From Allomyces macrogynus ATCC 38327 (lineage: Eukaryota; Blastocladiomycota; Blastocladiomycetes; Blastocladiales; Blastocladiaceae): a stretch of 64,000 bases of DNA. Below the pieces are notes generated by a model, which made no database searches, was not told the DNA's origin, and saw only the letters and a program-made list of their open reading frames with translations. The stretch covers positions 1,104,515-1,168,514 of the forward strand of contig GG745342.1 of assembly GCA_000151295.1 (NCBI GenBank), written 5' to 3'. Both the position numbers and the translations under genes were made by a program. This document shows, in pieces, positions 17,586 through 63,234 of this stretch (the stretch's first letter is position 1; each line of letters begins with the position of its first letter).

Positions 17586-18073
17586 TTGATGGCGAACGGA
17601 AGGGAAATATTGATGCTCTCCACTCAGTTTTATGTCAAAACACGGCTGAAATTGAAAGCAGGATACATGGTGGCGCGTCAGATCCTGCGTTACTGCTGGA
17701 TTGTCGCTCCGTTCACGCCCTTGTCAGAATTTCAGGTCACAGCGATTGCGGGAAAGCTCTTGATGGCTGATGCTGTAGCTGGGACACGAAAGAGCGTCAG
17801 AAAATCGATCCACTTCAAAGAATCCCATCCACATCCGCGCCTCGCGTCCATGTTTTCTTTTCCAGCCTTGGATCTGCAGCGTGCACGCCAGTTAACATTG
17901 GATCGATCAGGCTCATGCCATGCACCAACATCGTTACCGCGTTGGCGCCCTCGGATACCCAAGACGACCAATCGTTCTCGCCCATTTCGTGATCGTTCCT
18001 CGAGCGGCATTCAAAACCGCTTCGGCACCCCTATCAACGACAGCAGCCCTCCCACCATTGATCACACCCGACT

Positions 18074-19097
18074 ATGGCCCCATCAATGCGCAACCCAACG
18101 CTCCTGCCACTGTTTGCTCTGCTCGCTCTTGCGGCCTTCGCCGCGCCGGTACTCGCCGACAAGCCCGTCAAGAGCGTCAACGAATGGACATACTTTGATT
18201 TCAGCAACGTGGGGACCTCGACCGACACCTACACGGTCACCCTGTCCAAGGAAGGGTGCCTGATCGTCGCCGACGCGTTCTGCTCGGGCGACCAGTTTCT
18301 GGTGACCATCAATGGCCAGGACAAGGATGCCCGTGTGTTGTCGATTGAAACCGTTGGCCGCGAGCCATCATCGAACGAATGTGTCCCTGACCTTGCCATT
18401 AAACCGGAAATGCATTTAGGCCTCACGTCGGCGCCTTCGGCAGCCTGGTGCACAGCGCAAATCGACGGCGATTTCGACTCGGCCCTGACCCACCCGGACT
18501 TTTCCAAAGGCTATTTCCCAATCACTGGCGCGACCTCGTTCCGGATCACCGTCGCCAACACGGCACGCGGCGGCGGCGCCTTCTTTCGAGTGACTTCGAA
18601 GGAGGTACTGCGCATGACATCAATGGCTCTTGTATCGTCTTGTCGGCCGTGCTTGCTCACCCACCCTTCCCGATCGCACGTCCCAGTGCCCTGTTCAATT
18701 CAAAGTCGTAACGGCCTCTGGTCTCGTCACGTCGCGCGCAGCGGCCGTCGCCGCGTGCGAGGCCGCTGGGATGACGCTCGCCGACGTGACCGCCGCCGAC
18801 TGGAAGACGGTCCTCGACGTGACCCATACGATTCCGGATATCAAGCTCAACCCGATTCTCGCTGTCGTCGTGAATTCCTGGAACGGCGACGCGTACGATG
18901 GCGCGACCCTGCAGCTCTCAGTCTCACCGGCGAGCGGCGCTGTCACGGTCTTGACGACGCCGGCCTACCCGCTGTGCCAATTATACTCGGTCTCGACACT
19001 GGTGGTCCCGGCCGTGCCATCGGCTGCCAAGTCGTTTGCGGGCAACGGCCTGCAGCCCAAGGATACGCACAACGGGCGGATTATCGTGGGCAAGTAA
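18074..19097 (+). CDS. Secreted two-domain family protein, tandem copy 4
   Basis: Exons 18074-18332, 18420-18604, 18687-19097 (284 residues). Signal peptide ends LADKPVKS. Domain motifs as in the other copies: GCLIVADAFCSGDQFLV, AWCTAQIDG, HPDFSKGYFPI, then CPVQFKVVTASG and VNSWNGDAYDGATLQLSVS. At the position where copies 1-3 have the first donor, copy 4 reads GGATGCC instead of GGGT; the next GTGTGT six bases downstream restores phase and adds two residues. The resulting 87-nt intron is a multiple of three with no in-frame stop, so it could also be retained. The LCQ motif is followed by an LYSVST insertion. Confidence 0.8.
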
Positions 19098-19375
19098 CGT
19101 CGTTAACAGTGTGGAATGGCTGTGCGAATCTTCTCCACCGGGCGTTGAATTGGGATACATTTAGTTTGTGTGTTGATCATTTCCTTGTCGCGTCGGTTCG
19201 AGTGATGCTCATACCCGGCCGGCAGTCCGACGCTTCTCCATTAGTGAGGCGCTCCTGATGCCCAATAGCAAAAACAACAAACCGTGATGCCAAACGCGCC
19301 ATGTTTCCGAAACGCAAGCCTCCCCTCCCCCGACCTTGGAGTCCTATCCCCCTCGTCTCCAGTCCACGACACACC

Positions 19376-22300
19376 TCACAGCACCACGACATTCGCCGCG
19401 CCGCCGTACCCCAACTGTTGCAGCATCTCGACCGTCGACGTGTTGAACCCGGGCGGCCCACAGACCACAATCAAGGCGTCCTGCTGCACGCCCGCGCCCA
19501 AGTCTGTGGTCGTCGCATCCGCATCCACCACCGGCGCAACCGCTGCCGCCAGCGGGACAACTCCACGCCGCCCCAGCGTGCCCGCGGGCGTCACCATATC
19601 GTCTGCCATATCCGTTGCGGGCGGCGGCGGCCCGGCAGGTACCAACGGCGGGCCACCTGGGGATCCACCAAGAACAAATGACACGGACGGCCGCCGGCGC
19701 AAAGTGCCGTTGATCGACACGGATGCACCGCCGACAGTCGACACGGACCCGCCCCCGGCCAGCGTGCGTGCGAAGACCGACGGCGGGCGCGATGTAGGCG
19801 CGCCGCCGCTGCCGTTGACGCCGCTGGCGGTGCGCGTCGCGGGCGGCGGGAGGTACTTGCGCAACGCGTCCTTGGTGATTCGCGACGCCGTGTGCGCTGG
19901 GATCGGGCCGGACGCGGGGACCGCGGTGGGGATCGCCGCGGCGAGGGTGGACGACGCGGTGGCCGGGGTCGAGTTGGAGAGGAAAAACTCGACGCGGAGC
20001 ATTGGTGCGAGCGATGTCGCGAGATCTTGCAGTTCGGCCGCGTAAATCAGGTCCGCAGCAGAGCTTGCCTGATAGAGCAGCGTGATTTTCGCGATGGGTT
20101 GGTTGGTCGCCGGGTCCCGCGGGCAGAACCGCGCATAGTAGTCGATGAGCAAGAGCATCGGCGTGATCCCCGTCCCCGCGGCCACGAGCCCGACCGTCTC
20201 AAAGCACCCGTGCGAGTCGCGGTCCACTTCCATCCCGTCGACGACCGTCGGCCACCCGCCGACCGCTGCACCCGCGTGGTCGTCGGTCCCCGGGAACGCG
20301 CGGCCCGCAACCGCCGGCGCGAGTTTCAGCAACGATTTCGGGCACCGGATCGGTCCGCGCATAAGCACGTCGTCGTCAATCTCGACCTGTTCGAGCGCCG
20401 ACGTGAGCGCGCCGTCCGGGTAGACGCGAATCAGTAGATCCATGTGCCCAACACAGTGGCACACGAGCGGCGTGAAATGGCGTACGACGAACCGCGTGGT
20501 GTTCGGAACGGCCACCTGCATTTGCACGGCGTCGCCCGGTTTCAGCCACACTTCGTCAATGTCGCGCGGGAACGCGAACCGGAACAGGTAGACCGGGTGC
20601 GCTTTCGCCGCGGGTTGAGCGGGGGCCACGGGCGTCAGCGACATGGCCGCCGTCAGGCCACCGAGAAGGCTCGGACCGGGTTCGGGGCCGCCGCCGCCGG
20701 GTCCCCATACGCGCACTTTGCTCACGAGCCGCAATGGGCGGAACTGTTCTTCGGCCATACCGAGCACGGGCGGCCGTGGGATCCACGACGGGACGAGATC
20801 GCCCTCGACCCACTCTTCGTTGGCCGCGACCGCCGCATTCGCCGCCGTCGCACGCTTTTTCTCGTCCGAGTCCTCGGCGAGCATGCCAATGGCCAGCGTG
20901 TTGAGCTTGAGTCGGGCCAATCGCGAGTGCGCGTGCACGACGAGTCGCCGCACCGACATGCTGCGCGCCATGCCCGACGCGGAGGTCGCAGGACTTGCAC
21001 CGACGAGCCGCTGCAGCATGGTGGAGACGTGTCGCGGACGCATGGCTGTGTTGGCTGTCGCCGTGGACGTGACGCTCGCTGACCGCATGATGCCGTTGAA
21101 CGCCATCGACGCGTCAGCGCCGACGTAGCGGAGGAGAATGTCGCGGCCGCCTGGGTGCGTGTCGATGTAGGCCGTCACATCCTACATAGAGAGGCAGTTG
21201 AGTCAGTCTTTGTCCATGGAACAGCACGCCGTCGCAAGGGAGCCGTACGTAAATCACCGCATCAATCACGAGCCACAACCGCCCGCTCGCCACTTTTTCG
21301 TTCAACTCGGCCCACGTAAACTCGGGCAACCGACGGTATTCATCCTCGTCCTTGAGCAATCCCGATTTCGATGCGACCAGCGAGAAATTCGCGAGGCGTT
21401 GGACCTTGTGCAGCGTCTTGATAGCGACTCGGCCGTACTTGACGCGCCACACCTCGCCCACGACCAGCAACACGAGCACCACAACGACACACGCCCACGT
21501 CAATCCGCGGAACCACTTGTACGCCGGGTTCAGCTTCTCAATCGCGTCGCAGCCGAGCAACGAGTCGTACACGCCCACACACCACGTGCTAATCGCCAGC
21601 GGCAAATGCAGCCGGCGCGACCACGTCTGCGCGGTGCGGCCAAACCGCGCCATCATACTTGCCGATATCCCCAAAAGCATCGTAAGGCCAAGGCCGACGG
21701 ACGTGACCATCCCCCAGATCCCGTGCGCCGACGACAGCTGGCCGTCCTGCGAGACGAGTGCCGAGAGCAGCGACAGTGCCGTTTGCGAAAACACGAATTG
21801 CGACGTCTTGAAATGCAGGTCGAGCCAGTTCTTGGACGCCCAGTACCGCGCGGTAAACACCGAGAACGGGATCACAAAAAAGAAGGCCAGAATCATCAAT
21901 AGACTGTGCAGGACCTTGAGCCCGATCGGCTTCGAGTACTTGGTCGGCGTCGTCGTGGTTCCGCCACCGCCACCGCCTGTCGTCGGGGTCGTGGGGGTGC
22001 TCGCCGTTGCATAAAAATTGACATATGTCTTGCCGCGACGCGACCCGTGGTACGCGAGGTTCGGTGTCGGGCCGTACGCGAACGCAACTGGCATATAGCC
22101 GGTCGTGATGTTGAGGTCGCGCGCGTCGCCCGACGCAAGCAGGCGGCGCCACGTGTACCGGTTCCGGCCCGTTGCGTCGACCATGTAGGCAAACCCGGTC
22201 AAGTCAGCGGTACCGCCATTGGACGTGTCGCGCAACGGCGAGTAGCCCGAGTTGTAGTAGTCGTCAATGGTTGGTGCGGCTGTCGTCGGCCACGTGATGA

Positions 22301-24478
22301 GCGCAATGTCCATGGTGTTGGGCATTCCGTACCCGCCCACGCCAATCGCCATCCAGCCCGTGTTGGATGTCGCCAGCTGGAACGTGATATACGGCTCGGC
22401 AATCGTCCAGTTAAGCGTGGTCCCGGCCTCGAGCTGCACCGTGCGCGCTGCGTACAAGTCTGTCGCGGTCCCGGCTGCCGCCGCCGTCGCATTCTTGAAC
22501 GCAACGAGCGGATTCGCCGCATTGATGACGTTATTCGGGAACACGGTCAAGTTCGTATTCGCCACAAAGATCGACGCCATGGTCGCCTGCTTGACGGCAA
22601 TCGAATTCGCCGAGTACCCGGACGTCGGCGACGCATAATAGAACGTGTCCGACTTGTAGGCGGTCGTGAGCAGTTTGACCATGGCCGCGGCAATCGTCGG
22701 TCCCACACGCGCCGTCGAAGCAAATGATTCGGCCCACGCGCCCACACACCCTTCCACGTTGGCCACCGACCCGTACAATGACGTCAAGACGGCCTGCACG
22801 CCGGCGTTCGACGAAATATCGGCCATCGTCGTCGGCACACTGAGTCCGAGCGCGCGACGGACGGCCACGTACGAAGGCACCCCGAGATCGCGCGCGCGGT
22901 GAATCATGAGCGCCAAGTCGGCTGCAACACTCGTATGCGCCCCCGGGCCCATGCGTGCCTCGGCAGAACCAACCAGACCGCGCAGGACCGCTTCGAGCGC
23001 GCCGGGCGCCGTGAAGTTGACGGCAGGTAACGGCGTGAACGAGCCGATCGTGTAAATGTGACCCGCAGCGAATTCGGAACCGTCGTTGTTGTACCGGTAG
23101 AGGACAGGCTGGCGGCCCATGGTCCCGAGTCGGAGCGCGCAGACGGCCGCGAAAGTGTCGATTTCCGGGTTGGTCGTGTTCGAGTACCCGGGGAAACTGG
23201 GGTACCCGGTGCCGATCGTCGCGCCGTAGGTCTACCGTAGTGGAGGGTGAACGGCATGGCAAAGTGCTGTCGGAGAGTGCGAGGTGGAGAGGACGGACCT
23301 CGTCAAAGATGGTGCGCTGCCATACGGAAATGACCCACCGGCGCGCGCCCTGGAAGAGCCTAGAGGACATCGCGCACGGGAATGAGCACCACCAACACTG
23401 CCGTGTCCTCCAAGGCTAGCAAAACGTACTGCTCGTCGGTCCACGTCGGATTCGCCGCGGCGAGCGCCACGGCCTTGCGGTTATGTTCGCGCGCGAGAAT
23501 CGTAACGAGCGCCACAAGCGCCGGGTGCTTGTTGATGCGCAAATCACCGGCGAGCGCCACGGGCTGGAACACGGGTATCACGGTAGATCCGAGCGTGAGC
23601 GGCGACGAGTAGGTGATGGTCGGCAGCTGATTGTTGGGCAAGTTGAGCAGGCCGCCGGCCAGGGTGCGGAGCGATTGCTGCGTCGGCGTGCTCGTGCCTG
23701 GTTATATGTATCGAGAAAAGGCGCGTTTGTTGAGACTCGGCGGAGAAGCAAGCGGCAAGACTGAATGAACGGACCGTAGAGATAACCGGCGTCGATGAAA
23801 GCCGTGGCGAGATTGTAGGCCTGCTTCTCGTTGAAAGGGCCCGAAAAGTTGCCCGCGGCGCGCGCTTGCTGGATGACCACCGTCCCCGTGCAGGCGGGGT
23901 CGAGCATCGCGTCGCATGCCGGAACGGGGATCGGGAACGGCGTGGTCGGGTCGAGCTGGAGCTGGACCAAGTCGAGGTACAAGAGCTACCACCCCAGCAA
24001 TGAAGTGCGAACCTGCGCGTCAGTCGAGGCCCTCCAACAAAAGGGCACGCGAGAGCGACAGGGATGACCTGCCACGCACTTCGTTGAAGTAAGAGAGCAA
24101 CGCCGACCACGTCGTGGGCGCGCCATTGCTGGTCAAGGCGGCCTGGATCGCGGCATTGTCAAAGAGCGACTTGGCAATCAAACGCGGCGACGGAGCCGTC
24201 CAGGCCACGGCCGAGATATTGTCGGCGAATCCGCTGGGCACGACGGAGCGCGACAACGGGCGACCCGCGGCACCCCACCAGGGCTTGACGGGATTGTTGC
24301 CCCAGCCAGATGCCGACTGGACGGCTTGAGCGCGTGCGAGTCGGGGCACGCAAGCAAGGAGTAGCGAAACGAGCAAGAGTGAGAGAGCGAGCACCGGGCC
24401 GCGCGGATGCCGCGGTCGTGCAAATGGTGGTAGCCTGGGCGGTGGCCGGCAGGCGGTCGGTGCAATCAAGTCGGCCAT
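19376..24478 (-). CDS. Peroxidase-like/DOMON/cytochrome b561/cytochrome b5/NAD reductase fusion
   Basis: Six exons, 24478-24080, 23985-23775, 23697-23430, 23359-23299, 23231-21249, 21181-19376 (1575 residues). After an N-terminal hydrophobic signal/anchor come: an animal-type haem-peroxidase-like domain (about 60-510; GWGNNPVKPWWGAAG, AGDLRINKHPALVAL, REHN, WTDEQLFQGARRWV); a DOMON domain (about 575-705); a b561 domain with four conserved His (KVLHS, DLHFK, SAHGIW, RRLHLP; 745-925); a cytochrome b5 domain (LWLVIDAVIYDVTAYIDTHPGG, second His in RPRHVSTML); and a reductase (RHFTPL for FAD, AAGTGITPM and VCGPPGF for NAD; 1165-1575). The predicted role is transmembrane electron transfer from cytosolic NAD(P)H to an extracellular haem domain. 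In the peroxidase part the distal GQFLDHD region reads NELLYLDL and the proximal FGH region reads LGT, so both haem histidines appear absent. Exon joins each restore family motifs. Confidence 0.88.
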
Positions 24479-25764: not shown

Positions 25765-25771
25765 TATAAAA
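25765..25771 (+). promoter_or_regulatory. TATA box of small secreted gene
   Basis: TATAAAA 86 bp before the ATG at 25857, followed by a CA-rich leader with repeated CCAACC, typical of a strongly expressed gene. Confidence 0.7.
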
Positions 25772-25856
25772 GCGCGCGGCACGTCGCCCTCTCCGACCCA
25801 TCGTCAACCAAGACACCACACCAAGCAATCCAACCAACCAACCATCCACCTCCAAG

Positions 25857-26291
25857 ATGCTCACGGTCCAGCACGTGCTGCTTCTCGCACTCGTCGCGGT
25901 CCTCGCTATTGCCGCAGCCACGGCGACGCCCGTGCCCAACGGCCAGAACCCTGGCCCGTTCCCGCCCAACGACCCGCTCGTCACGCTCTACTGGACGCAG
26001 GAGCCGCGCGGCCCGACGACGGTCCAAGTCTACGGCGACTATCTCTCGGTGATCAAGGAATGCCGCGGTCTCGAGGGTCGTGCCGACGGGTTCGTCTACC
26101 TGCAGACGCAGCCGCCCTACGCGAACGACGGGCGCGATGCGTGGAAGGTGCGGCTCTACCGCGAGTGGGGCTGCGCGGGCGCGCCGGTCGCCGAGATTTC
26201 GAGCTACAAGGGCAAGGGGTCAGCCTACCCGGACCCGGCCAACCCCAAGATCCCACTCGTCGTCAAGTCGATCAAGTTTGTGCCGGCGTAA
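25857..26291 (+). CDS. Small secreted protein, unknown family
   Basis: Single exon, 144 residues. Residues 1-22 form a clear signal peptide (LLLALVAVLAIAAATATP). The mature part is about 120 residues, rich in Pro, Gly, Tyr and Trp, with two Cys (EC RGLEG.. and WGCAGAP), which could form one disulfide. It reads like a compact beta protein; no enzyme motif or known domain recognised. A TATA box and a CA-rich leader suggest strong or regulated expression. Not related by sequence to the tandem secreted array upstream. Confidence 0.75.
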   Translation: MLTVQHVLLLALVAVLAIAAATATPVPNGQNPGPFPPNDPLVTLYWTQEPRGPTTVQVYGDYLSVIKECRGLEGRADGFVYLQTQPPYANDGRDAWKVRLYREWGCAGAPVAEISSYKGKGSAYPDPANPKIPLVVKSIKFVPA

Positions 26292-28315: not shown

Positions 28316-28772
28316 TTATCCCCGCAGTGAGAGCGCTGTCTATGGACTGGGCGGCAGCGCGCGAGAGTCTTCATGCAAGAAAGGACCGAACCAAGCCGAA
28401 CGCTGGGGGAGGAGACGAGCCTGGTGGCGAGCGAGTGGCACCCGCGGGAGGAGGAAGGAGAGCAAGTGGAGAGTGTAAATATGAAAGTCTGAGACTGCAC
28501 ATTGTGGATGTGTGAGATGTGCTCCATTCAAGGTCTACACCTGTAACGTGAGAAACGCGTGGAGATGATTCCAGACAGCACTCGCAAAATCACAACGTCA
28601 GCGCGACCACCACCGACCGACCAGCCACCAGCTGGCCAGGCCCGTGGCCAGTGGCCACAGCCGTCTGCCAACCAGCATCACTCTTCCCCACCATTCCTTC
28701 TCTTCACGACGAAAACGCACCTCGCTGCTTGCAACCCGCTGTCGCTCGCTGCAACCAACCAACTCTCCAACC

Positions 28773-31700
28773 ATGACGCCCGACACGGCGCCCCCACCTC
28801 TCCCGCCGCGCGCCGAGAGCCCCGACGAACTCGCCGATGGCGCCGAACCGGCGGCCCCACCGCCGCGTATTCTGCACATTCTACACACCTTGTCGGTGCA
28901 GGCCATGCTCATTGGCGCGCGCGACGTGCCGCGCGCCTCGGACGCATCTGGGGCCACGTCCTCTCTGCGCCGTGCGCTCTCGGCACGCCCGACCGTGGCG
29001 CTCCCGCTCCCTACACCGGCGTGCATGCCCGACGACCCGCTGACGCCCGTCTGGAGCCATGCGCCCGCAGTCGTCGACCATGCATTGGTTCCCCGCGCGG
29101 ACATCCAGAATGGGGCAGGAACGACGCGGCACGCGCCGCCACCGCCGCTGGCTCCTCCTGTGCCCGCGGATGGGGCCGATACGGCCGCTGATACGCGTCC
29201 GCGGTGGAAACTTGTGCCGCGCCCGGGCCACCAGGCGCTGTATTCGGGTATCCATTCGCTCGCGCACGCGGCACCACCCACGGTCCCGCTCGCGAACCGG
29301 TCGGCACGCGACTTGCCCGTGAGTGCCGCTGCGGCAGCTGCCGAGTCGGACGACGCGGTTGCCTACCCGTCCGTCTACGTCGGTGCCGTCGGGCCCGCGG
29401 TCGATTCGACGGGCCACGTCATCGAGGGCTACGCGTTAACGCCCGCCGACCAGGCGGAACTCGCGAGTTTGCTTTGGCGCGACCACTCGGCGGTGCCCGT
29501 GTTCTTGGACGAGGCCACGGCAACGGATCACTACGAGGGGTACTGCAAGACGGTTCTGTGGCCGCTGCTGCACTACTCGCTCTGGGAGGGCGTCGCGACC
29601 GACGGTCGCCAGGAGCAGCGGCACTGGGAGGCCTATGTCCGCGCGAACCTCGAGTACGCGCAGGCCGCACTGCGCACCTACTTGCCCGGGGACCTCGTGT
29701 TCGTGCACGATTACCATCTCCTGCTCGTGCCCGCGCAACTGCGCGCGATGGTGCTCGGCCGCCGCCCGCCGCCAACGCCATCGGTCGATTCGAACGCGTC
29801 GTCGACGTTCATGTCGATGATCTTGCGCGGGTGGAATGGCGAAGGCCTGCCGACGGAACCGCCCGTGGACGATGATTCGGCGTCCATGGCGACCAGCTGG
29901 GAGACGCAGGATATGTCGATTGGCCTGTTCTTGCATACCCCGTTCCCGTCGTCGGAGCTGTTCCGGTGCTTGCCCAAGCGCGCGGCATTGCTCGAGGCGA
30001 TTCTTGGCGCATCGCTCATGTACGTGCAGCTGTTGCGTGCGATGCGGTGCATGTTGGTGGTCGCTCATCGACCAGATGCTCACGACGACGATTCTTCGAA
30101 TTAGCGGCTTCAACAACTACTCGTTCGCGCGGCACTTTGTCTCGTGCTGCACGCGCGTGCTCGGCCTCGAATCCACGCCGACGGGCATCGAATACCACGG
30201 TCGGCACGTGGAAATCGGCATTTTCCCAATCGGCATCGACGCCGCGCACTCGGACGCGCGCCGGCGTTCCCCCGCTGTCCGCGCGAAAACCGCGGCATTG
30301 CGCGAACTCTACGCGGGCAAGCGCGTGATTGTCTCACGCAACAAGTCGGACCAGTTGCAGGGCGTCGTGCACCAACTGCTGGCCTTTGCCAAACTGCTGC
30401 AGCTCTACCCGCAGTGGCAGAACAAGGTGATTCTGGTACAGATCACGCAACCGGCCGCGGGCCAAAAGGACGCGAATGCGAAATTGGAGGCCAAGGTGTC
30501 GGAACTGGTCGCGCAGATCAATGGGACCTATGGCACGATCGAGTATTCGCCGGTGCATCATGTGCATCGGACCGTCGAGCCCGATGATTTTTATGCGTTG
30601 TTGTCGGTCGCGGATGTGGTACGTTCCGTCGTCTCGGCGCGGGCTTGGCGGTGCTGGGGCACTGGTGCGTGAACTGACCGCGATTCGGCTTCGTGCATCG
30701 TAGGGCTGCATCACGTCGATTCGCGACGGGTACAACACGGTCTCGCACGAACTGATCGTCTGCCAACAACCGCCGCCGACCTCATCCACCTCGTCCACCT
30801 TCGACGACGCCGAAACCGACCCTTCCTGGGCCCCCGCGCCTCTCATCCTCTCCGAATTCACCGGCACCGCCGGCTCTCTCTCGGCCGCGCTCATCGTGAA
30901 CCCGTACGACTATCTCGGCGTTGCGGCCACGCTCGCCGACGCCCTATCTATGCCGCGCGCCGAACGCATCCAGCGGCACCGGCAATCCATGGCCATGGTC
31001 ACCAAGTACACGAGCCCGAAATGGGCCCGGTCGTTTGTGCGCGCGCTCGAAGGGTCGCACGCGCGCCATTTGATGAGCGCGACGCATACGACGCCGAGGC
31101 TGGATGTCGCCCGGTGTGTCGCGGCGTTTCATGCCGCCGTGGTCGTTGCGCCGACAACGGCGAACGAGGGGGATAAGGAGAAGATGCAGGCGGCAGTCAC
31201 GGCCGCGGCGGCGGCGGCGGCGCGGTCGCGCAGCTCGTCGATTAGCAGTAGTGCTGCTGGGAACGGTGGTGGGGTCGTGCCGCCGAATAGTACCGTGTCG
31301 GGCGCGAACGGGGCCACGGCGGTCGGCTCGGTCAAGCCGATGCGGTTGATTTTGTTTGATTATGATGGGACGCTGACGCCGGTACGTTGCCGCGCATGGC
31401 CCTCCACGTCCTTTCTCGAATCCACTTGCTCATCCACCTTGTTTGGTGCTAGATTGTGCGCGTGCCGTCGGCTGCTGAACCCTCGCCCGAACTCCTGCAA
31501 GCTTTGACGGCACTCTGCGCCGACCGGTCGAACCGCGTGTTTATCATTTCCGGCCGCGACCAGGCGACGCTCGACGCGTGGCTCGGCCATATCCCAGGTC
31601 TTGGCCTGTGCGCCGAGCACGGGTGCTACTTGCGCATGCCCTACAACGCGCGCGGGTGGCTCGACTTGACCGAGGAATTGGGCGACGCGGCCGTGTGGAA

Positions 31701-40909: not shown

Positions 40910-43104
40910 TCAGTCCAGCAACAGTCCCAGCGTCCGCTCCATATCCCCAGCAAAGTCGAGTCCCAGCCCACTCGCAAACGGCGGGACCCACCGCGCCTGC
41001 GTCGCCGTGTCATGTCCGTGGGCATCGACATCGTCCCTGTGCGCCTCGACCAGTAGCGTATCGAGCATGTGCGTGCCGTAGCACTCGCGGCACGCTCGCA
41101 AGTGGCGAAGCGGTGCCGTCTCGGACGAGGGCCCGCGCACGGGCGCAGCCGCAATCACGTACGGCCCGCCCGAACAATCGCCGCAGACGACGTGGCCGCA
41201 CACTCGACAGTGGTGCTACGTAGGTGCGGGGACGTAAGCCTTGGCTCGGCGACTTCATCAAACGAGCAGACATACCCTGCGCAGGAGAAGCGTGAAATTG
41301 CTGGCACAAATGGCACATGCTCTTGCCTGGCTGTCGGGAACCCACACGGGCGCGACGTAGTCGGGAATGACGGGTACCGAGTGCGGTCGGTCCGGTCGAA
41401 CGGCCGCAGTCGCAGACGGAGCCGGGGCACGCGCCGACACCGGTGGTGGGGATTGCGCCAAATCAGCTTTGACTCGCGTGATGGCCCGAATCCATTCCTG
41501 TGCCGTCGATTCCGATTCTGTGCAAGGATGAACCGGGTCAGCGCGGACAAATGGGATGTCAGAACCCAATGCACGTACCCGCCACGAGCACAAAGCTTTT
41601 GTCGCGCGCAACGATCTCAAATGCAAACGCAACAGCCGTGACGGGCCTCACACGGGCAATATCGAACACGTCAACGCTCCGATGGAAGAGGAGCCGGTTG
41701 CTTGGAGCGCGGCTACGTGGAGTAAAGCGGACAAAACTTGTGAGCGTGAAATGACATCAAGGCAAGGAAGCTCCAGAGGCGGAGCCATACCTCGTCAGGA
41801 TCAGGACGTCGTTGAAGAGCAAGACATGGCGGTCGTCGCGCGACTTACGCGACACCTTTTTCAAGTCGCCGACCTGGACGAGCCGGCGCGAGGGCAAAAG
41901 CAACGGAATCGAGCAGCCAAGCAACCGCTGCTGGACTTGCAGCACGTAGTTGGCGTGCTCCTCTTGCCGAATCGCTTCGTTGACGAAGTCGGCCACGTCG
42001 TCAATGATGCGCGCGGCCGCTTCAAGCTGCTGCACGTCTTGGACGAGGTCGGCTGGCACGGCGGCCCCGGCCGTGGCACAGGCCTTGAGGTGCTCGGTCG
42101 TCGAGAGCAAGTCGCGAACGAGGAGCCGGTACCGCGGAATGCGCTGGACGGGCAGGATCAAGTGCGACTGGATGTGCAAGATGGGGTGGTCGCCAGCCTA
42201 TGTGTTCACCATTCAATGCCCTTGTTAGTCGGCGCGAAACATGATTCCGGAAGCGCCAAGCAAAAGCGGTGCGCACCCGCACGACGTCCTTGCCCTGCGG
42301 GAACCGCGCGAAAAACTGGCTCAGTGCGAGCAGTGACGCCTGATACCCGCTCGCAAACGTTGCGTATACTTTGAAGAACGGGCCCATGCGCTGTAGGAGG
42401 AGCGCAATCGGCGCCGCGCCGTGCCACCGCATCGTCGACTTGGGCATGGGCCGCGCGCTCAACTGGCTCTTACCGCCAAACAGCTGCACCTCGAGCGCGA
42501 GCAAGAACGAGCGGCTCAGTGCGACAATCTCGACGAGGTTGCGGAAGATTTGAGAGCAGTCTTGCGTCGTCAGGAGCGGCGGCGTCGCAGTGCGCGCGTG
42601 CGCGACGAGCGGATCGACGATGCGCGACAAGAGGTCTTCGAGGCCGTCGAGGTAGCTGCACTCGGTCGTGTAGAGCTCGTAGGCGATGCTCTGCCGCCGC
42701 TGCGCGTACTTGGTCGCGTCTGCGATCGACTGATCTGTCGCGGGCGGCGCGGACTGTGGGTGGAGCGATGCAGGCGGATCCCATGCATGGTGCTCGACGA
42801 CGGGCGCCGACGGCGAGTGCGCGAGGCCATTCTCACCCACATCTTGGCGCTCGGATGGGAGGATAGTGGTGGCGGCGTGCGTCAAAGTAGCCGAGACGGC
42901 GAGCTCCTTGTACTTGTTGATAATGTGGAGAATAGGCGACCCGCGCGATCCAGGCTCCGTCGGCGATCTCGATCTCCGTTCGTCGCCAGGTTTGCTGTTG
43001 GTCGTTGGGCTGGCCGAGGCGACCGAACACGCCGAGTCGCGAGGGGCCATCGAGGCGCCGAGCGGGACCAGGGACGGCCAGTCGAATCGCTTCGCAGGCT
43101 CCAT
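40910..43104 (-). CDS. Rho guanine-nucleotide exchange factor, DH-PH-FYVE (FGD-like)
   Basis: Activates a Rho/Cdc42 GTPase at phosphoinositide membranes. Five exons, 43104-42277, 42197-41791, 41712-41579, 41517-41276, 41215-40910 (638 residues). Disordered N-terminus, then a DH domain (about 130-350: YELYTTECSYLDGLEDLL; HLILPVQRIPRYRLLVRDLL, CR3), a PH domain (about 375-475; joined over two introns, with FEIVARDKSFVLVAESE and EWIRAI), and a FYVE zinc finger (about 525-610: APVWVPD, CAICASNF, RRHHCRVCGHVVCGDCS). The FYVE core RRHHC is created by the last splice. Intron 1 has a clear GACTAAC branch site. The frame is open upstream of 43104 but has no ATG, so 43104 is the start. Confidence 0.93.
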
Positions 43105-43996
43105 GATCGAGAATTTGCGATAACGGTTGGCAGCGGGCACGCTTCTACGTCTATGGAATTGGCTAATTTTCGCGATCGCGAAGTCGTGGGCCGAGCGCGA
43201 GCGTCGAAGACTTGACGGGCCTCCCTGCAGCGATCTATTCGGAGCTAACGAGGAGATCGAATTGCATCGAGTTGGGGCGAGGACGGCCTGGAAGTCCAAG
43301 CTGCAGGCCGGGCTTCAGCAACCACGAAGAACAACGGTTACAGTTGTCAGTGAGCAGATATAACGCGGTCACGTGTCACGTTTATCAAGATTATTCTTCG
43401 CGGCTGAGCGCAAAGCAGCCACCAGCACCAGCGCCGTTCCCGGCCAGCGAAGAGTCCCTCAAATGCAGCACGCTTAACGAACACCTGGCGCATTGCATTC
43501 TTGTGCCTCAAATATAGACGATATTTACGCAGCTTCCCAGCCAGGGCGGGCCAGCGTCCCTGCTCCAGCGGAGACCGGGTCCTTTGCCAGCTTTCCGCAT
43601 CCCAACTTCGGCGGCGAAACGAATTACCTCTGCTTCCCCTCACCTCCCCTTCCCTCGCCGACTCGTGCGACTACGTCTGCCCCCTGCACCGCGCCCCTTA
43701 CTCTGAACCGACCGCCCATACTCGCCGCCGCCATCTCTCTGTTGCCATCCGCATCACCCTCTCCAGCGCCGACTCGCCGTCGCCTGGGCCCTCGACTCCA
43801 TATCGATAGACGATTCCGACTCCTCTCTGTTTTGCACGTTGCGCTGCCCTCGCCCGGTCGTCGCCGCGTATTCCCGCCGCCGCAATCCACTCGTCCCATT
43901 CCAAACCCCGCGTCGTTCGACTTGCCCCGTTTCTGTCGACACCGCGCGTTCGATCCCTTCCGATCTCGCGCCGTCCCCTCGATTCCTCGCGCCACG
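43105..43996. promoter_or_regulatory. Divergent promoter region, RhoGEF and FAM72
   Basis: About 890 bp. Pyrimidine-rich leader before the FAM72 start (about 43630-43990). An AT-richer central part (about 43330-43480) may hold both core promoters. No gene supported. Confidence 0.45.
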
Positions 43997-51216: not shown

Positions 51217-53319
51217 CTATTCCCGCAACAACCCAACCTCATCCGCCTCCGCGCGCGCCTCCCCCATTGCCGGGGCACCCGGCCGTGCGTACCCCGCGGG
51301 CGCGACATTCCCTGCACGCGCCCTATTGACGGCCTGCCCGACCGCCCACAAGAGGAACCCAAACGCGGTCCAGAGCATCAGGTAGAGAGCGTGCATCCAC
51401 TCGTTGGCGACCGACACGGCGAGCATGCCCGTGCACGCGAGCAGGAACACGACGGGCGTCGTGGGCCACACTTGGAACGGCCGTTCCGCGTACCGCCACG
51501 TGGTCGAGACGTAGCGCAGGACCAGGAGCGCGACGGCGGTCGCGCCGTAGAACAGGTATGCGGCGAACGCATACCAGTGGATCAACTGCATGAGCTGCGC
51601 CGACGCGAGCATGACGGCGGCGAGTGCCCATTGCAGCGCCAAGGCGCGCAGTGGCGGTTGGTTTGGTGGAGTTGCGAACGCCGCGGGGAAGTGCGATTGC
51701 TGAGCGGCAGATTGGATCAGGTAGGCGCCGCTGAAGATGCTCGAATGCAAGGCGCCAAACGTGCTATGGAAGGAACCGGGGAACGATCAGTGTGGTGTTC
51801 GGGAAGGGCTCGAAAGAAGAGGGCGACTGCGCACCTAATCACAATGAACACGGGCAGGAGGACTTGGCCGACGCGGCCAAACGCAAGCCAGCCAAACTCC
51901 ATGACCATACCCTGGTCTTGCCGCAGCATCGACGCGGGCAACACAATCAGGTACGCGACGTTGGTCAAGACGTAGCAGACGGTCACCAGAGCAACGCCCA
52001 GGATCAGCGCGCGCGGAACGTTCTTTTCGGGCTGCGAGACTTTCTCAGTCACGTAGTTGAGATTGTTCCTGGATGGTGATCGTGACTGGGTCAGTCAAAT
52101 CATGCCAATGAACATGGACGCGATTGTGGGACGCACCAGCCGTCGAAACCCCATAGCGCGGCTTGCATGGCCAGAACCCAACTGTGCGACGAGATGCCGG
52201 TTGCCGACGCGTTTGCGGCCACCTTGTCGTGCACGACCAAGGGCCCGAGCCCCGTGCCGCGCGCATAGACGGTGATGCCGGCCGCGCACACGACGGCAAT
52301 GGCCGCGAGTTTGATGACCATGAACACCGAGTGCATGCGGTTGACAGACCGCATCGACGTGGCATTGATCGCGACCGTGGCCGTCAAGACGAGCACTGCG
52401 ACCACGAGCTCGAGAATCCCGGGCGCCGTGCTGGCGCTGTCGCCGTCCACGCCACGCTCGACGGTCGGTGGCGCGCTGGTCATGGTGAGCAGTCGGTGCA
52501 GGTACTTTGCGCACACGGAAGCGAGGATTGCAGCACTGCCCGACTTGAGCAGCGTGACTGACGTCCACAGAAACGCGAGTGCTGGGAACCGGCCAAAGGC
52601 CTCGAGCAGGTACGTGTACTCGCCGCCGTTGCCCGTGATCAAGGTGCCGAGTTCGGCGTAGCAGAGTGCGCCCGACATGGAAATGATCCCGGCGAGGACC
52701 CAAATCTGGTAGAGTCGCGGTGTTAGCTTCCGCCGGGTGCTTTTGGGCAATGAGATCTGGTGGACAACACGCACCAGGATGGAGGCTAATACACTGTTCG
52801 TGTACGAGTAAATCGGGCCCGGCGACACAAAGATACCAGAGCCTGTTCAATCGCGACAAAGGGTCAGCGCGGCCACTTTGGACCTGTGCGCGCACGACGG
52901 GCCGCGGAATCAAGCGCGAAGGTACCGATAATGGCGCCGACAATGACGGAGATGCCTACGTCAAAGGAAAGCGTGATATCGCTGATGAGCGCGCGTTAAC
53001 CATGGAGAACAGCTCCATTCTCGTGAAATAAATTTTTAGGGGAAAACATACTGGTCCATAACCCCATGGTCCCGCGTCCATTCGCGGCTTCGATATCGCC
53101 ATCATCGTCACCGTCTCCACCGCCTCCGACGGTCGGGCGGAGCGGGATGCCGTGGCTGTCGGCAAAGATATCGATGGTCGAGTCGAACGAGTCGCGCGGC
53201 GAGTGCGCTGTGTTGTCGGCTGCGCGTGCGGGTCCGAGCAGCAAACCGCGCGAGCTGGGTTTCGCGTCAACGTCGTCGTGCTGATGGAGCGGGCGGAAAC
53301 CCGCGGCAGGGCCGCCCAT
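51217..53319 (-). CDS. LAT-type amino-acid permease
   Basis: Amino-acid/polyamine/organocation superfamily transporter, L-type/Mup-like branch. Six exons, 53319-53063, 52981-52926, 52842-52775, 52705-52137, 52068-51835, 51763-51217 (576 residues). An acidic Gly/Asp-rich cytosolic N-terminus is followed by about twelve membrane segments. Splices restore the family motifs: VGAIIGSGIFVSPGPIY (exons 2/3), ILIWVLAGIISMSGALCYAE (3/4), LWGFDGWNNLNYVTEKV (4/5), and VISTFGALHSSIFSGAYL (5/6). The first splice is the weak point: frame continuity needs a GTTATG donor at 53062 although a better GTATGT lies ten bases later. Substrate not predictable beyond large neutral amino acids. Confidence 0.88.
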
Positions 53320-53950
53320 GGTGCTGATGCTGCTGGTGCAAGGTCAAAAGGCTCCAGTACTGGTGCAAAGAGGGCGACTTGCGGCGCGCGTGAAGAGCGT
53401 CGCAGGCAAACGTGGAGCGCAGGCCGCGGCGCGCCTTGCAGCTTGCTGTTGCGGTGGACAGAGTCGTGTCCTCGCGCTTGGTTTGGGCCTGTTGGTCGTT
53501 GCTGCACATCGAAAAGTCGAGGCAAGCGTGCTCGACAACGATGTTTGCGAATCACGATGTGGCGAGGAGCGGCGGGCCAACAGGCAGTGCAGTTTTATCA
53601 TGGATAAGACTGCCAGCGGGCCAGCAGGCATTGGACGCCTCTGCGCCCCACCACAGACCACAGGAACACTCCCGCGCGTCGGTTGGTTGGCCAGTTTGCC
53701 CTCTTCCGCCACTCTTTCTCCACCACGCCGCTCGCCTCGCCGCGACCACAACAGCAAAGGCCACGACGTGCGCCAACGACAACGGCAAGAGCACTCTGAT
53801 CGCCGCGAGACGCTCGTGTCGCGTGCCCCAGGACCGGGACCGGTTTTCGAGCACGCACCCCGCAACCCAACGTCGCCTGATCTGGCCGCACTTCCAGCTT
53901 CAGCAACAACGTCTCTCAGAACCGGACGACCAGCCCTCAACTTCCTCGCC
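53320..53950. promoter_or_regulatory. Divergent promoter region
   Basis: 631 bp between the permease and the gene at 53951. The plus frame is open back to 53318, but the codons before 53951 look like leader (CACCACGCCGCTCGCC) and have no motif. Confidence 0.4.
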
Positions 53951-55843
53951 ATGGCCGACACGGGCAACGGCGCACCGGGCGCCGCGCAGATCATTCGTCT
54001 GCTCGACGCCAACGGCACGGACCTGCTTGACTCGGTCTCGGGCGACTACGAGGACTCGTTCTGCCTGGAAACGTTTGCCGACCTGATCAAGATGCACGCG
54101 GCACTCACCATCGACCAGGCCAAGCCAAAGACAGTCGACCCGGCCGGCACGATCAAGTCAGGCGAGTTTGTGTCGCTGCCGCCGCGCCCGCGGTGCTTCA
54201 TTCTCGCGCGCGTGCAGACGTGGGACTCCAAGCAGCCGGGTCGCGCCTACTATTCCTACTACAACGCCTACCACCTCAACAAGATCCTCTTCCAGACGCA
54301 GATTTACTTGAAAAAGAAGCTCATTCATCGCCTGCACGTGCTCAACCCGCTCACCAACACCGATATTATCGGCAACGTGCAGTACTTCATGGTGCAGCCC
54401 AAGGACGCGCCCGCCGCGGCGGGACCGAGCAACGTTGTTAAGTCGGCCGCGATCACGCCGGCGTCGCCCGACGTCGTCGCCGGGAACGACCCGCCCAAGC
54501 AGCCGCCGGCGCTGCTGGCCGTTGACGTCGAGCGCGCGGCCGCCGTGCCGTCGGGGATCATTTCGGCGCCGACGCCGTCGTCGCGTACAACGGCCGCAAC
54601 CGTGTTTGGGCGGCGGCGCGCGTCGGGCACACAGACGCCTCTGCCGACACCTGCGTCGGCGTCGGAACCCGCCGACTGGACGATCAACACGCAACTCGTC
54701 ACGGAACTGCGCGACGACGACGACCGCGATGCCGCGGAGGGCGAGAAACCGACCAAGATCCGCCGCAAATCGCGCGGGCTCGTTGTGCCGTCGACTGTCG
54801 TCGCGGCCGCAGCGCGCCGTTTGTCGAGTGCCGGTCGCCGCCTCTCGGTGATTGTCGGTGGACCCAACCCCATGACCGTGCTCGCGGCAATTGGCGACCG
54901 GTCCGAGTCGGCCATGCCGATTACCGGCGCCCTCGACAATAGCGACGCGCACGAGGCGCATCTGGCGTCGTCGCGCATGCGGCACCGGTCGTCGAGTGCG
55001 CGCGACGCTTCTCCACCCAAGATTGCGGCGGCCTCGCGCGGGCGGGCCATGTCGCTGACCCCGGACACAGGTAGCGGCTCCGGTATCGCAGGTGCCGCCA
55101 ACGTCGAGATTGTGTCCAAGCCGCCCGACAAGCCGCTCAACATCAACAACCACCGGTCGCACACGGTCAAGGTGACGGTGCCGCGCGGCACGATCACGCG
55201 ATTCGCGGTGCCAGTGCCCGAGGTCGAGATGGAGCGCCCGCCGACCCCACCGCGGCGCCGGCGCGGTCTGTCGCTGTCCAACTCGGGCCACGTCGACGGC
55301 GACGTGTGGGTCAAGCAGTTGCGCACGGCCGTCGTGCGCGTGCAGCAACAGCAGCAGGAGCAAGCGATTCACGAGGAGCCCAGTGCGTCGGCCATGGCGC
55401 TCGACGCGCGCGCTGTCGCCGTTGATACGTACGACGCGATTTTGGTCGGGACTGACAACGATTACCTCGAGTCGTCTAAGATGCGCGCGTTGTTCCGCGA
55501 CCACGCGGTCACGCCCGACGACGTCAAGCTGTTTGAGATGCCCGAGTACACGGGCGAAGAGTACGTGCCCGACCAGTCGCCGACTGACGCAGACGGGCAC
55601 GTTCACCACCACCATGGCACACTGCCGGTGGTCGTGTTTGACGACGAGGGGGCCGAAATGTGCGCGGCGTGCTATCCGACCAACGAGCAGCTGGCCGTCA
55701 TGTCGCCGACAATGCGTTTTGTGCACAAGGTCAAGTGCCACGCCATGATTTTGGCCGTCGGCGCCGTGTGCGTGCTGTTCTTGGTCATGCTCTTGCAGCA
55801 TGGCAACCAGCCGACGGGGCCCACTGCGCGCACGTCGAGCTAA
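53951..55843 (+). CDS. Tail-anchored protein with conserved-looking N-terminal domain
   Basis: Single exon, 630 residues. N-terminal domain (about 20-150): FADLIKMHAALT, then GEFVSLPPRPRCFILARVQT and NAYHLNKILFQTQIY, ending HRLHVLNPLTNTDIIGNVQY; I recall this block as shared by uncharacterised fungal proteins but cannot name the family. The middle 400 residues are disordered and Ser/Arg/Pro-rich with a QQQQQ-type run. Near the end: EMPEYTGEEYVPDQ, an HHHH run, a CAAC motif, and a single C-terminal membrane span (MILAVGAVCVLFLVMLL) with a short tail. That predicts a C-tail anchor with the domain in the cytosol. Function unknown. Confidence 0.8.
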   Translation: MADTGNGAPGAAQIIRLLDANGTDLLDSVSGDYEDSFCLETFADLIKMHAALTIDQAKPKTVDPAGTIKSGEFVSLPPRPRCFILARVQTWDSKQPGRAYYSYYNAYHLNKILFQTQIYLKKKLIHRLHVLNPLTNTDIIGNVQYFMVQPKDAPAAAGPSNVVKSAAITPASPDVVAGNDPPKQPPALLAVDVERAAAVPSGIISAPTPSSRTTAATVFGRRRASGTQTPLPTPASASEPADWTINTQLVTELRDDDDRDAAEGEKPTKIRRKSRGLVVPSTVVAAAARRLSSAGRRLSVIVGGPNPMTVLAAIGDRSESAMPITGALDNSDAHEAHLASSRMRHRSSSARDASPPKIAAASRGRAMSLTPDTGSGSGIAGAANVEIVSKPPDKPLNINNHRSHTVKVTVPRGTITRFAVPVPEVEMERPPTPPRRRRGLSLSNSGHVDGDVWVKQLRTAVVRVQQQQQEQAIHEEPSASAMALDARAVAVDTYDAILVGTDNDYLESSKMRALFRDHAVTPDDVKLFEMPEYTGEEYVPDQSPTDADGHVHHHHGTLPVVVFDDEGAEMCAACYPTNEQLAVMSPTMRFVHKVKCHAMILAVGAVCVLFLVMLLQHGNQPTGPTARTSS

Positions 55844-62076: not shown

Positions 62077-63234
62077 CTACTCCTCCAGCGTCGAAATGCA
62101 CTCCCACTCGCCCTCCACATTCTCGCGCCACAGCGTCACCTTATTGTCCCCGCTCGAGACCGCCAAGACATCACCCGCCAACGACCACGACACGCGCCAA
62201 ACGACATCCGCAAACGTGTGCAGCTTCTTCTTCTCAAACCCGGCGACCGGCGACGTCTGCGTCCAGATATAGACCGTCTTATCCTGCGAGCAACTGGCCA
62301 GGTACTGCGCCGGGATCCCGACGTTTGGCGCAAACGCCACGTCGCGGACCCAATCCGTATGCGCATCGAGCGTCGCGACCGGCTCGTAGGTCTTGGTCTC
62401 GGGCGAGAACTGCCAGAGCTTGATCAAGTTGTCGCACCCGGCCGACGCGAATCGCGCGGCGGGAATCGGCGAGTCGGCATGCGTGTCGTGCGCGGCATAG
62501 AGCGCGCCCGAAACGGTCGACGGCGCCCACGCCACGGCATTCACGCCAATCACGTGCGCCTGGATCTTGGTCGACGTGCCCCACGTGCCCGACTCGCCGT
62601 CGTAGGTCGTGATGCAGACGTACCCGTCGGACGAGGCTGACGCCAGGACGAGACCGTGTTCGGGCGGCGCCCACGCGATCGAGTTGACTACCGGTGCGCA
62701 GTTGCGTCAGTACGTGCGCGAGACAAGGGCGCGAATGACAGATGAGCAGGAGATGCGCACCCGACGCCGAGTGGCCCGTGTGCTCGTGAATCTTGGTAAA
62801 CTGGCCGTTCACCTCCTTCCAAATGAAAATGCGGCCGTCGTACGAGGCCGACGCGAGCAGCGAGCCGTACTTCGGGTGCGCCCAGGCGACCGCCCAGACG
62901 GGACCATCGTGACTAGGATGAACGCGTAAGTCGTCGTTCGACGCGGGCATAGCGACACGGCGCGCGACGTGGTGGGCGCACACGTACCCCTTGAGCGTGT
63001 CGATCAGCGTCTGCGATTCGCCTTCGACGTCAAAGATGCGGATCGTGCGGTCCGACGAGCAGGTCGCGAGCCGCTTGCCGTAGTAGTCGAACTGCGCGTC
63101 ATGCTGCGTTCGAGTGGGGAGCACGTCAGTTGCACGGGTCCATGAGTCCAGGTGGAGCATGGCCGTGTCGAGCAAACTGGTGGAACGCGGAGAGCACGTA
63201 CGATCACGTCCTCGTGGTGCGAATCAAAGTTCAT
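62077..63234 (-). CDS. SEC13: Sec13 WD40 protein (COPII coat / nuclear pore)
   Basis: Six-bladed beta-propeller that pairs with Sec31 in COPII vesicles and with Nup145C-type partners in the nuclear pore. Exons 63234-63202, 63103-62988, 62912-62761, 62687-62077 (303 residues, normal length). The first exon encodes only [11 protein letters not shown]; splicing continues into [140 protein letters not shown] and VTLWRE. WD repeats are complete. A CAG just before the start suggests a 5'-leader intron. Confidence 0.96.

What the first reader, a model, noticed from the sequence alone, without database searches (positions are those of the whole stretch)
19376..24478. Five-module redox fusion resembling a convergent dual oxidase
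Seen: one continuous six-exon gene joins an animal-haem-peroxidase-like ectodomain, DOMON, a four-His b561 core, cytochrome b5 and an FAD/NAD reductase. Known: DUOX couples a peroxidase ectodomain to an NADPH-oxidase core; DOMON-b561 proteins and cytochrome b5 reductases exist separately. Inference: this is an independent solution for sending cytosolic NAD(P)H electrons across a membrane to an extracellular domain, perhaps for ferric reduction, superoxide or wall chemistry. I know of no described protein with this order.
Basis: partly seen in the sequence, partly recalled or inferred. Interest (0 to 1): 0.9.

Follow-up and report, generated by a model that had tools for sequence, protein, structure and literature searches.

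The report
Fungal electron relay with dead peroxidase
A gene of the water fungus Allomyces joins five redox modules in one protein that would carry electrons from inside the cell out through its membrane, and its outer, peroxidase-shaped part has lost the two histidines a working enzyme needs, much as in human dual oxidase, so it offers a second case, on a different membrane core, for asking what such dead caps are for.

Summary
A 92%-identical homeologue has the same five introns; dN/dS is 0.09. Allomyces arbusculus, A. javanicus, Blastocladiella emersonii and one EukProt protein with a Cyanophora-style name carry the same order, as undescribed predicted proteins. Our full-text searches listed no paper on it.

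The interpretation needs changing. (1) The peroxidase part is dead: the distal His is L/I in 7 of 7 sequences, the proximal His T or Y in the fungal copies that cover it, and both haem-ester acids are gone, while three of four calcium-site residues remain. Human DUOX1 shows a like loss. (2) Cytochrome b5 is split by a loop of about 51 residues; its second axial His is H1059. (3) The core is a CYBDOM (DOMON-b561) without the modelled ascorbate-docking residues, with a b5 plus reductase module attached. (4) "Convergent" holds only for the membrane core; a tree puts the cap with DUOX's, without significance.

Most likely it is an NAD(P)H-driven transmembrane reductase ending at the DOMON haem. 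Structure prediction failed; no biochemistry or transcript was tested.

The parts
19376..24478 (-). whole gene, 6 exons, 1575 aa; An_peroxidase-DOMON-b561-cytochrome b5-FAD/NAD reductase
   Evidence: spliced frame open with one stop; same model in homeologue; Pfam
24080..24478 (-). exon 1: hydrophobic signal-like segment (residues 29-47) and start of peroxidase domain, ending at E133
23775..23985 (-). exon 2: rest of the distal-site region (L134-LYLD138; with N132-E133 it stands in place of GQxxDHD) and calcium loop (T194, D198)
23430..23697 (-). exon 3: AGDLR257INK260 (distal Arg kept, ester Glu replaced by Lys)
23299..23359 (-). exon 4: 61 bases of the peroxidase domain
   Evidence: 97% identical in homeologue
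21249..23231 (-). exon 5: rest of peroxidase (T350 where the proximal His should be), DOMON, b561, first part of cytochrome b5, without an intron
19376..21181 (-). exon 6: rest of split cytochrome b5, FAD/NAD reductase, variable linker, CGPP end
22542..24319 (-). pseudo-peroxidase ectodomain (residues 54-543, interrupted by introns 1-4)
   Evidence: Pfam E 4.8e-73; haem residues lost; dN/dS 0.082
22071..22418 (-). DOMON domain (residues 585-700); candidate haem ligands M616 (22323-22325) and, just past the profile's end, H708 (22047-22049)
   Evidence: aligned Met and His (one search aligns P0008's Met to M620 instead)
21549..21911 (-). b561 core (residues 754-874); H755, H786, H816, H855
   Evidence: under curated cut-off; over cut-off; four His invariant in 4 of 4 rows
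20876..21317 (-). cytochrome b5 (residues 952-1076, interrupted by intron 5); axial H983 (HPGG) and candidate axial H1059 (HAHS)
20939..21091 (-). about 51-residue insertion (1005-1055) splitting cytochrome b5 between its two axial histidines
   Evidence: taking it out extends the Pfam match to 1-73 of 74; reversed-tail control does not
20348..20599 (-). FAD_binding_6 (residues 1169-1252), RHFT motif at 1208
20003..20188 (-). NAD_binding_1 (residues 1306-1367), AGTGITP at 1309

Best explanation
It is one five-module protein that likely takes electrons from cytosolic NAD(P)H and passes them through FAD, cytochrome b5 and two b561 haems to a predicted haem in an extracellular DOMON domain, where ferric or cupric ions are the likely acceptors, while the peroxidase domain, which has lost its haem-site residues, would act as a folded, calcium-bearing cap. 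Shown by sequence: the gene model, the domain order, four b561 histidines, a DOMON Met and His, both cytochrome b5 axial histidines on either side of an insertion, the FAD and NAD motifs, and the loss of the peroxidase haem residues. Inferred: membrane topology (signal-like start and ectodomain outside, about five helices, C-terminus inside), haem occupancy, direction of flow, and the pairing H755-H816 (outer haem) and H786-H855 (inner haem), copied from the plant CYBDOM HYP1. The modules stand along the chain in the reverse order of the flow: DOMON adjoins the first helix, cytochrome b5 follows the last. Plant CYBDOM HYP1 draws electrons from ascorbate; here the equivalents of its two modelled ascorbate-docking residues are absent and a b5 plus reductase module is attached, so I read the protein as a CYBDOM re-plumbed to run on NAD(P)H. 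Untested: acceptor (Fe/Cu against O2), NADH against NADPH, and what the cap does.
For: Gene model and homeologue; domains; same order in P0001, P0002, P0003 and P0008. Four b561 His and the DOMON Met and His invariant in the 4 rows. Split b5: window piece 59.8 bits without a tail, 62.3 with the native loop following, 68.7 (1-73 of 74) with the loop left out, 60.1 with the tail reversed; Blastocladiella 64.6, 74.1 (loop out), 64.1 (reversed); P0008 34.0, 39.4, 33.0. H1059-S falls on the axial His-Ser of solved cytochromes b5 in the five alignments printed. Haem residues of the peroxidase lost. dN/dS 0.00-0.23 in all 11 segments, peroxidase 0.082. HYP1 passages: trans-membrane electron flow and ferric/cupric reduction, modelled haem pairs 1-3 and 2-4, ascorbate residues R307/N311, i.e. 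-7/-3 of the fourth His (PMC10784544); at those places 7 of 7 family rows have Q, T, Y or A, and R. CYBDOM DOMONs carry a conserved Met and His (PMC10691727 passages). The hDUOX1 cap lacks the haem-ligand His and shows no haem density (PMC7794343 passages).
Against: Two AlphaFold2 jobs gave unusable models (mean pLDDT 36.8; 40.4), so no haem geometry or topology was tested. b561 is under Pfam's curated cut-off in hmmscan for the window protein, P0001, P0003 and P0008 and is not listed for P0004. The ascorbate argument rests on residue spacing in one modelled protein. In P0008 the DOMON Met aligns in two ways, a His lies one place before the proximal position, and Pfam gave no NAD-binding hit. 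P0004's gene model lacks the reductase. No transcript or enzyme data.
Confidence: 0.62

Rival explanations
1. It works like DUOX in product as well as plan: the outer haem or the DOMON haem hands electrons to oxygen, making superoxide or H2O2 for signalling or wall chemistry.
For: Same logic and a like dead cap as DUOX (PMC7794343 passages). The tree does not separate the cap from DUOX's.
Against: The core is b561 plus DOMON; its studied relative HYP1 reduces ferricyanide, ferric chelates and cupric ions (PMC10784544 passages). The genome has its own Ferric_reduct-type genes (17 exon-level matches, 15 over the cut-off). No EF-hands. O2 reduction by b561 proteins was not looked up.
Confidence: 0.2
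2. The DOMON haem gives its electrons to a secreted protein partner (a cell-wall oxidase), as the DOMON-type cytochrome of cellobiose dehydrogenase does (recalled), rather than to metal ions; the cap would dock the partner.
For: DOMON Met and His kept; DOMONs are homologous to the CDH cytochrome (PMC10691727 passages). For nematode DUOX a docking role of its inactive peroxidase domain, for the separate peroxidase MLT-7, has been supposed (PMC6411640 passages).
Against: No partner was seen: the only animal-type peroxidase domains found in the genome are those of this family (7 matches in 3 loci), and 10 of the 19 long frames of the window that were scanned gave no redox domain. Other oxidase families were not sought.
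Confidence: 0.1
3. The ectodomain is a working peroxidase fed by the electron chain.
For: Full-length PF03098 match; distal Arg kept in the fungal copies.
Against: Distal His, proximal His, ester Asp and ester Glu are all replaced in the window protein; the superfamily signatures GQxxDHD and RxxE (PMC4420034 passages) are not met.
Confidence: 0.03
4. Two neighbouring genes were joined by mistake.
For: No transcript data are available here.
Against: Exon 5 alone carries parts or all of four modules in one frame; intron 5 lies inside cytochrome b5; homeologue and three other fungi show the same protein.
Confidence: 0.02

Closest known systems
CYBDOM proteins (DOMON-b561; Arabidopsis HYP1/CRR, fly CG8399, human FRRS1/SDR2)
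   Same: DOMON with conserved Met and His beside a b561 core with four His; transmembrane reductase plan.
   Different: Here a cytochrome b5 and an FAD/NAD reductase are attached on one side and a dead peroxidase on the other; the ascorbate-docking residues modelled in HYP1 are not kept.
Dual oxidases (DUOX, family 7 of the peroxidase-cyclooxygenase superfamily)
   Same: N-terminal peroxidase-homology domain without haem ligands, calcium site largely kept, on a transmembrane reductase with FAD and NAD(P)H domains.
   Different: Core is b561 plus b5 plus b5-reductase type module instead of NOX; no EF-hands found; a DOMON stands between cap and membrane.
Ferric reductases with extracellular DOMON (FRD superfamily; Naegleria, oomycetes; PMC3591440 passages)
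   Same: DOMON placed outside a transmembrane reductase.
   Different: FRD core; cytochrome b5 and peroxidase are not named there for them in the passages seen.
Cytochrome b5 / cytochrome b5 reductase fusions (CYB5R4, nitrate reductase; domain order recalled)
   Same: b5 and FAD/NAD domains in one chain; both names are among the solved relatives.
   Different: Here in a b561 membrane protein, and b5 is split by an insertion between its axial histidines.
Peroxinectin A (PDB 6erc) and the lactoperoxidase-named entry 8s6c
   Same: Closest solved relatives of the ectodomain by sequence (138 and 183 bits).
   Different: 8s6c shows GQFLDHD, RSNE and GHT; 6erc shows both His and RGNE but lacks the ester Asp (GQFLIHN). 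Here all of these but the Arg are replaced.

Membership tests
CYBDOM (DOMON-b561) | DOMON directly before a b561 core with four haem-ligand His | tested here: met
   H755, H786, H816, H855 invariant in 4 of 4 rows; b561 profile under cut-off in hmmscan, over it in the genome search
CYBDOM (DOMON-b561) | Met and His haem ligands in DOMON | tested here: met
   M616 and H708 (92 apart; fly CG8399 M286/H379 93 apart); by sequence only
CYBDOM (DOMON-b561) | ascorbate as cytosolic donor (residues equivalent to HYP1 R307, N311) | tested here: not met
   positions -7/-3 of the fourth His are Q/R in the window protein, never R/N in 7 rows; residue proxy only, donor not measured; may not hold for the whole family
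DUOX | N-terminal PF03098 domain without proximal His | tested here: met
   T350 at the position; distal His is L137
DUOX | NOX core (Ferric_reduct, FAD_binding_8, NAD_binding_6) | tested here: not met
   no such hit in the window protein at E 0.01; NAD_binding_6 only under cut-off in P0001 and P0003
DUOX | EF-hands | tested here: not met
   none at E 0.01
DUOX | DUOXA partner | not tested
   -
Peroxidase-cyclooxygenase superfamily, active enzymes | GQxxDHD, RxxE and proximal His | tested here: not met
   NELLYLD, R257INK, T350; signatures from PMC4420034 passages
Peroxidase-cyclooxygenase superfamily (PF03098), as homologue | full-length profile match | tested here: met
   2-523 of 530, 247 bits, cut-off 25
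Cytochrome b5 | two axial His (HPGG and HS) | tested here: met
   H983, H1059; loop-out test with reversed-tail controls; sequence only, the structure job failed
Cytochrome b5 reductase-type FAD/NAD module | RxYT/S-like, AGTGITP and CGPP motifs (recalled as typical) | tested here: met
   RHFT 1208, AGTGITP 1309, CGPP 1548; Pfam FAD and NAD domains over cut-off
any of the above | haem, FAD and NAD(P)H binding and electron transfer measured | not testable with these tools
   needs expressed protein

The most novel reading that the evidence does not exclude
DUOX's dead peroxidase ectodomain is not an animal oddity but an ancient eukaryotic module: a haem-less, calcium-holding cap that sits on two unrelated transmembrane electron pumps, NOX in animals and a re-plumbed CYBDOM in blastocladiomycete fungi and a glaucophyte alga. 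Its work is to gate or stabilise the outward electron port, not to use peroxide.
Probability: 0.2. Interest if true: 0.88.

Novelty: new variant of a known kind. Interest (0 to 1): 0.72.

Why it matters
The role of DUOX's mutated peroxidase domain has been called obscure (PMC4420034 passages). A second protein line that keeps a like dead cap under purifying selection, on a different membrane core, makes the question testable by comparison: what both caps keep (fold, most of a calcium site) is a candidate for the function, what both lost (haem site) is dispensable. It also suggests how a cytochrome b561 reductase, in the plant case driven by ascorbate, could run on NAD(P)H, and gives a single-chain transmembrane electron wire for study.

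Tried and rejected
Active peroxidase ectodomain: rejected on residues. Two-gene artefact: rejected on exon 5, the position of intron 5, homeologue and orthologues. I first thought the second b5 ligand might be H1025 (RPRH) or missing; dropped when HAHS/HQHS proved invariant in 4 of 4 rows and the loop-out test extended the profile match. AlphaFold2 on the DOMON-to-end part and on cytochrome b5 alone: both too poor to use; no fold search was made on them, and the peroxidase part was not folded. Prokaryotic or viral relatives of the core: 114 and 32 pattern stretches, none confirmed. Core profile search for peroxidase-free relatives: only the three known fungi, among 7,996 scored candidates; P0008, known, was not listed there, so the census is a lower bound. 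NCBIfam gave only weak hits of the reductase part to bacterial reductases, far under their cut-offs. Common descent of the cap with DUOX: fungal rows + P0008 + DUOX against six other peroxidases 83/90, not significant; fungal rows + P0008 68/52; fungal rows + DUOX alone not rejected (p 0.252); fungal rows + the six others not rejected (p 0.201): left open. The 14-row tree left out P0002, used one of two peroxidase stretches of each crab protein, and took its five PDB rows (two DUOX) from printed, partial alignments.

If nematode DUOX still binds haem, an ancestral dead cap is less likely.
Full report
WHAT IS THERE. The gene lies on the minus strand, ATG at 24478, stop ending at 19376. Splicing the six exons gives 1575 aa with one stop; the five introns are 67-94 bases, GT-AG, and none is a multiple of three. 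Pfam finds An_peroxidase, DOMON, b561 (21.6 bits, under the curated 23), Cyt-b5, FAD_binding_6 and NAD_binding_1 in that order. In the whole-genome six-frame search the same b561 stretch scores 27 bits, over the cut-off. Exon 5 alone, one open frame, carries the second half of the peroxidase, DOMON, b561 and the start of cytochrome b5; intron 5 lies inside cytochrome b5. The fusion therefore does not rest on exon choice. No transcript data were available.

INDEPENDENT COPIES. The own genome (54 Mb, 75 contigs) holds a homeologue on C58: 1443 of 1569 aligned residues identical, the same five intron positions, exons 86-97% and introns 69-83% identical. dN/dS by Nei-Gojobori is 0.094 for the whole, 0.082 for the peroxidase part, 0.051 for b561, 0.219 for the C-terminal linker; the 11 segments range from 0 to 0.231. 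All seven An_peroxidase matches in the genome fall in three loci: this gene, the homeologue and a third copy on C63. Stretches of the C63 copy match AMAG_07884 of Allomyces macrogynus ATCC 38327 (P0004 residues 1-271, 272-342, 342-430, 432-452) exactly, with the first three introns and the donor of the fourth at the same places as in the window gene, before a run of N. The window thus comes from A. macrogynus or something very near it.

RELATIVES. Three protein searches were made, each scoring only the roughly 8,000 candidates that share most words. (residues 550-1575): 3 hits among 7,992 candidates: Allomyces arbusculus P0001 (1572 aa), A. javanicus P0002 (1567 aa), Blastocladiella emersonii P0003 (1641 aa, 42% identical there). 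(P0001, residues 50-560): 8 hits among 7,991: these three, P0004, two crab proteins, an unnamed peroxidase with a Por_Secre_tail (P0007, of bacterial type; dockerin match just under its cut-off) and P0008 from EukProt. (core profile): 3 among 7,996, P0008 not listed. P0008 (1399 aa) has An_peroxidase, DOMON, b561 (17.3 bits, under cut-off), Cyt-b5 and FAD_binding_6 in the same order, plus AGTGILP and CGPP motifs; Pfam gave it no NAD-binding hit. Its name, tig00000718_g3689.t1, has the form that one paper prints for Cyanophora paradoxa (tig00000269_g23772.t1; PMC12449267, one passage); I take it to be that glaucophyte but no record seen says so. P0004's gene model stops short: its reductase part is missing. 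The core had no confirmed relative in the collection of 84,980 prokaryote species' genomes or in viral contigs (two peptide patterns each).

THE PEROXIDASE IS DEAD. Aligned with the canonical P0007, the distal His is L in P0001, P0002, P0004 and P0008 and I in P0003 (5 of 5 family rows); in the window protein it is L137, and the homeologue reads the same. The ester Asp is Y or A (5 of 5), the ester Glu K, A or S (5 of 5), and the proximal His T, T, Y and R in the 4 rows with a letter there (P0004 has a gap; P0008 has a His one place earlier). The distal Arg is kept in four of five and lost in P0008. The signatures used are those in PMC4420034 (passages), which also says that DUOX's domain has lost its proximal His and its activity and that its function remains obscure. 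In hDUOX1 the cap lacks the haem-ligand His and shows no haem density, and a cation site is formed by D109, D174, S176 and T170 (PMC7794343 passages). By the alignment these are D138, D198, G200 and T194 here. The first Asp, the Thr and the second Asp are present in 5 of 5 family rows, the Ser in none. For nematode DUOX the record is mixed: a review says its domain lacks critical haem-binding residues and may dock another peroxidase (PMC6411640 passages), while a reference title speaks of its haem binding.

CYTOCHROME b5 IS SPLIT. The Pfam match stops at position 58 of 74 in the window protein, before the second axial His. An HxHS motif further on (H1057, H1059) is invariant in 4 of 4 rows. 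Scores against Pfam Cyt-b5 for the window piece: 59.8 bits without a tail, 62.3 with the native loop following, 68.7 (to position 73) with the loop left out, 60.1 with the tail reversed. Blastocladiella: 64.6 without tail, 74.1 loop out, 64.1 reversed. P0008: 34.0, 39.4 and 33.0. Against solved cytochromes b5, H1059-S1060 falls on the axial His-Ser in the five alignments printed. From the HPGG His to this His there are 76 residues here, 120 in Blastocladiella and 38 in P0008, against 24 in the solved 3ozz as printed.

HOW IT LIKELY WORKS. The DOMON keeps a Met and a His 92 residues apart (M616, H708); CYBDOM DOMONs keep such a pair (93 apart in fly CG8399; PMC10691727 passages). In P0008 the Met can be set against M616 or M620. 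The four b561 His are spaced 31, 30 and 39; in HYP1 (H211, H245, H278, H314) 34, 33 and 36, with modelled haem pairs 1-3 and 2-4 (PMC10784544 passages). HYP1 takes electrons from ascorbate and reduces ferric and cupric substrates; its modelled ascorbate contacts R307 and N311 stand at -7 and -3 of the fourth His. Here 7 of 7 rows (window, homeologue, P0001-P0004, P0008) lack both. I infer NAD(P)H - FAD - b5 - inner haem - outer haem - DOMON haem - acceptor. Haem content, topology, acceptor and cofactor preference are untested. Structure prediction gave mean pLDDT 36.8 and 40.4, too poor for any geometric claim.

CONVERGENT OR SHARED? The membrane core differs from NOX in family, so that part arose separately. 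For the cap, a 14-row tree gives the five fungal rows as a clade (100/100) with P0004 outside Blastocladiella plus Allomyces (91/85). Fungal rows, P0008 and DUOX lie on one side of a branch from six other peroxidases (83/90, not significant), fungal rows and P0008 together at 68/52. Neither fungal plus DUOX (p 0.252) nor fungal plus the six others (p 0.201) is rejected. P0008 has a very long branch, and the DUOX rows are partial. Shared descent of the dead cap is possible and unproven.

LITERATURE. Ten full-text searches were made. Eight bear on the architecture; of these I saw the top 20 of 540, 6 of 6, 20 of 117, 20 of 511, 6 of 6, 20 of 306, 0 of 0 and 10 of 9,468 papers; none listed describes this order of domains by title or abstract start. 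Subscription journals are mostly not held. Passages, not whole texts, were read in PMC3591440, PMC7794343, PMC12449267, PMC10784544, PMC10691727, PMC4420034, PMC5787809 and PMC6411640; PMC5787809 gave only a reference line and is not used.

VERDICT. It is a new variant of known kinds: a CYBDOM-type transmembrane reductase with its own NAD(P)H module and a DUOX-like dead peroxidase cap, found in two genera of one fungal phylum and probably in a glaucophyte.

Noticed in passing
L015 2692-4244 (own genome C63:1092691-1094243): A third, older copy of the family (AMAG_07884 in A. macrogynus) with the same first three introns and fourth donor site; the rest lies in a run of N in this assembly, and the public gene model P0004 lacks the reductase.
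   Followed up: partly
own genome C26:253740-254066 and C45:341371-341598: Two further DOMON genes. From reading the frames, C26 looks like a DOMON with a hydrophobic tail and C45 like a DOMON followed by membrane helices; C45 is not in the b561 list, and neither was tested further.
   Followed up: no
own genome, 17 exon-level matches to Ferric_reduct (e.g. C30:172859-173203, C75:290920-291264): The genome also has several NOX/FRE-type genes, so the five-module protein is not its only transmembrane reductase.
   Followed up: no
window 18062-19255 (+): Neighbouring frame read convergently with the finding; has a signal-like start, no Pfam match. Similar sequence lies beside the homeologue on C58 (alignment).
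   Followed up: no
window 25770-26291 (+): Small open frame with a signal-like start upstream of the finding on the other strand.
   Followed up: no
window 28569-30101 (+), 42025-43314 (-), 53285-55840 (+), 62282-63223 (-): Pfam matches: glycosyltransferase family 20, RhoGEF, DUF5092, WD40; 10 of the 19 long frames were scanned and none showed a redox domain. Rfam found nothing at gathering scores.
   Followed up: partly
P0005, P0006 (crab proteins): Each matches the An_peroxidase domain in two separate stretches, i.e. a double-peroxidase protein.
   Followed up: no
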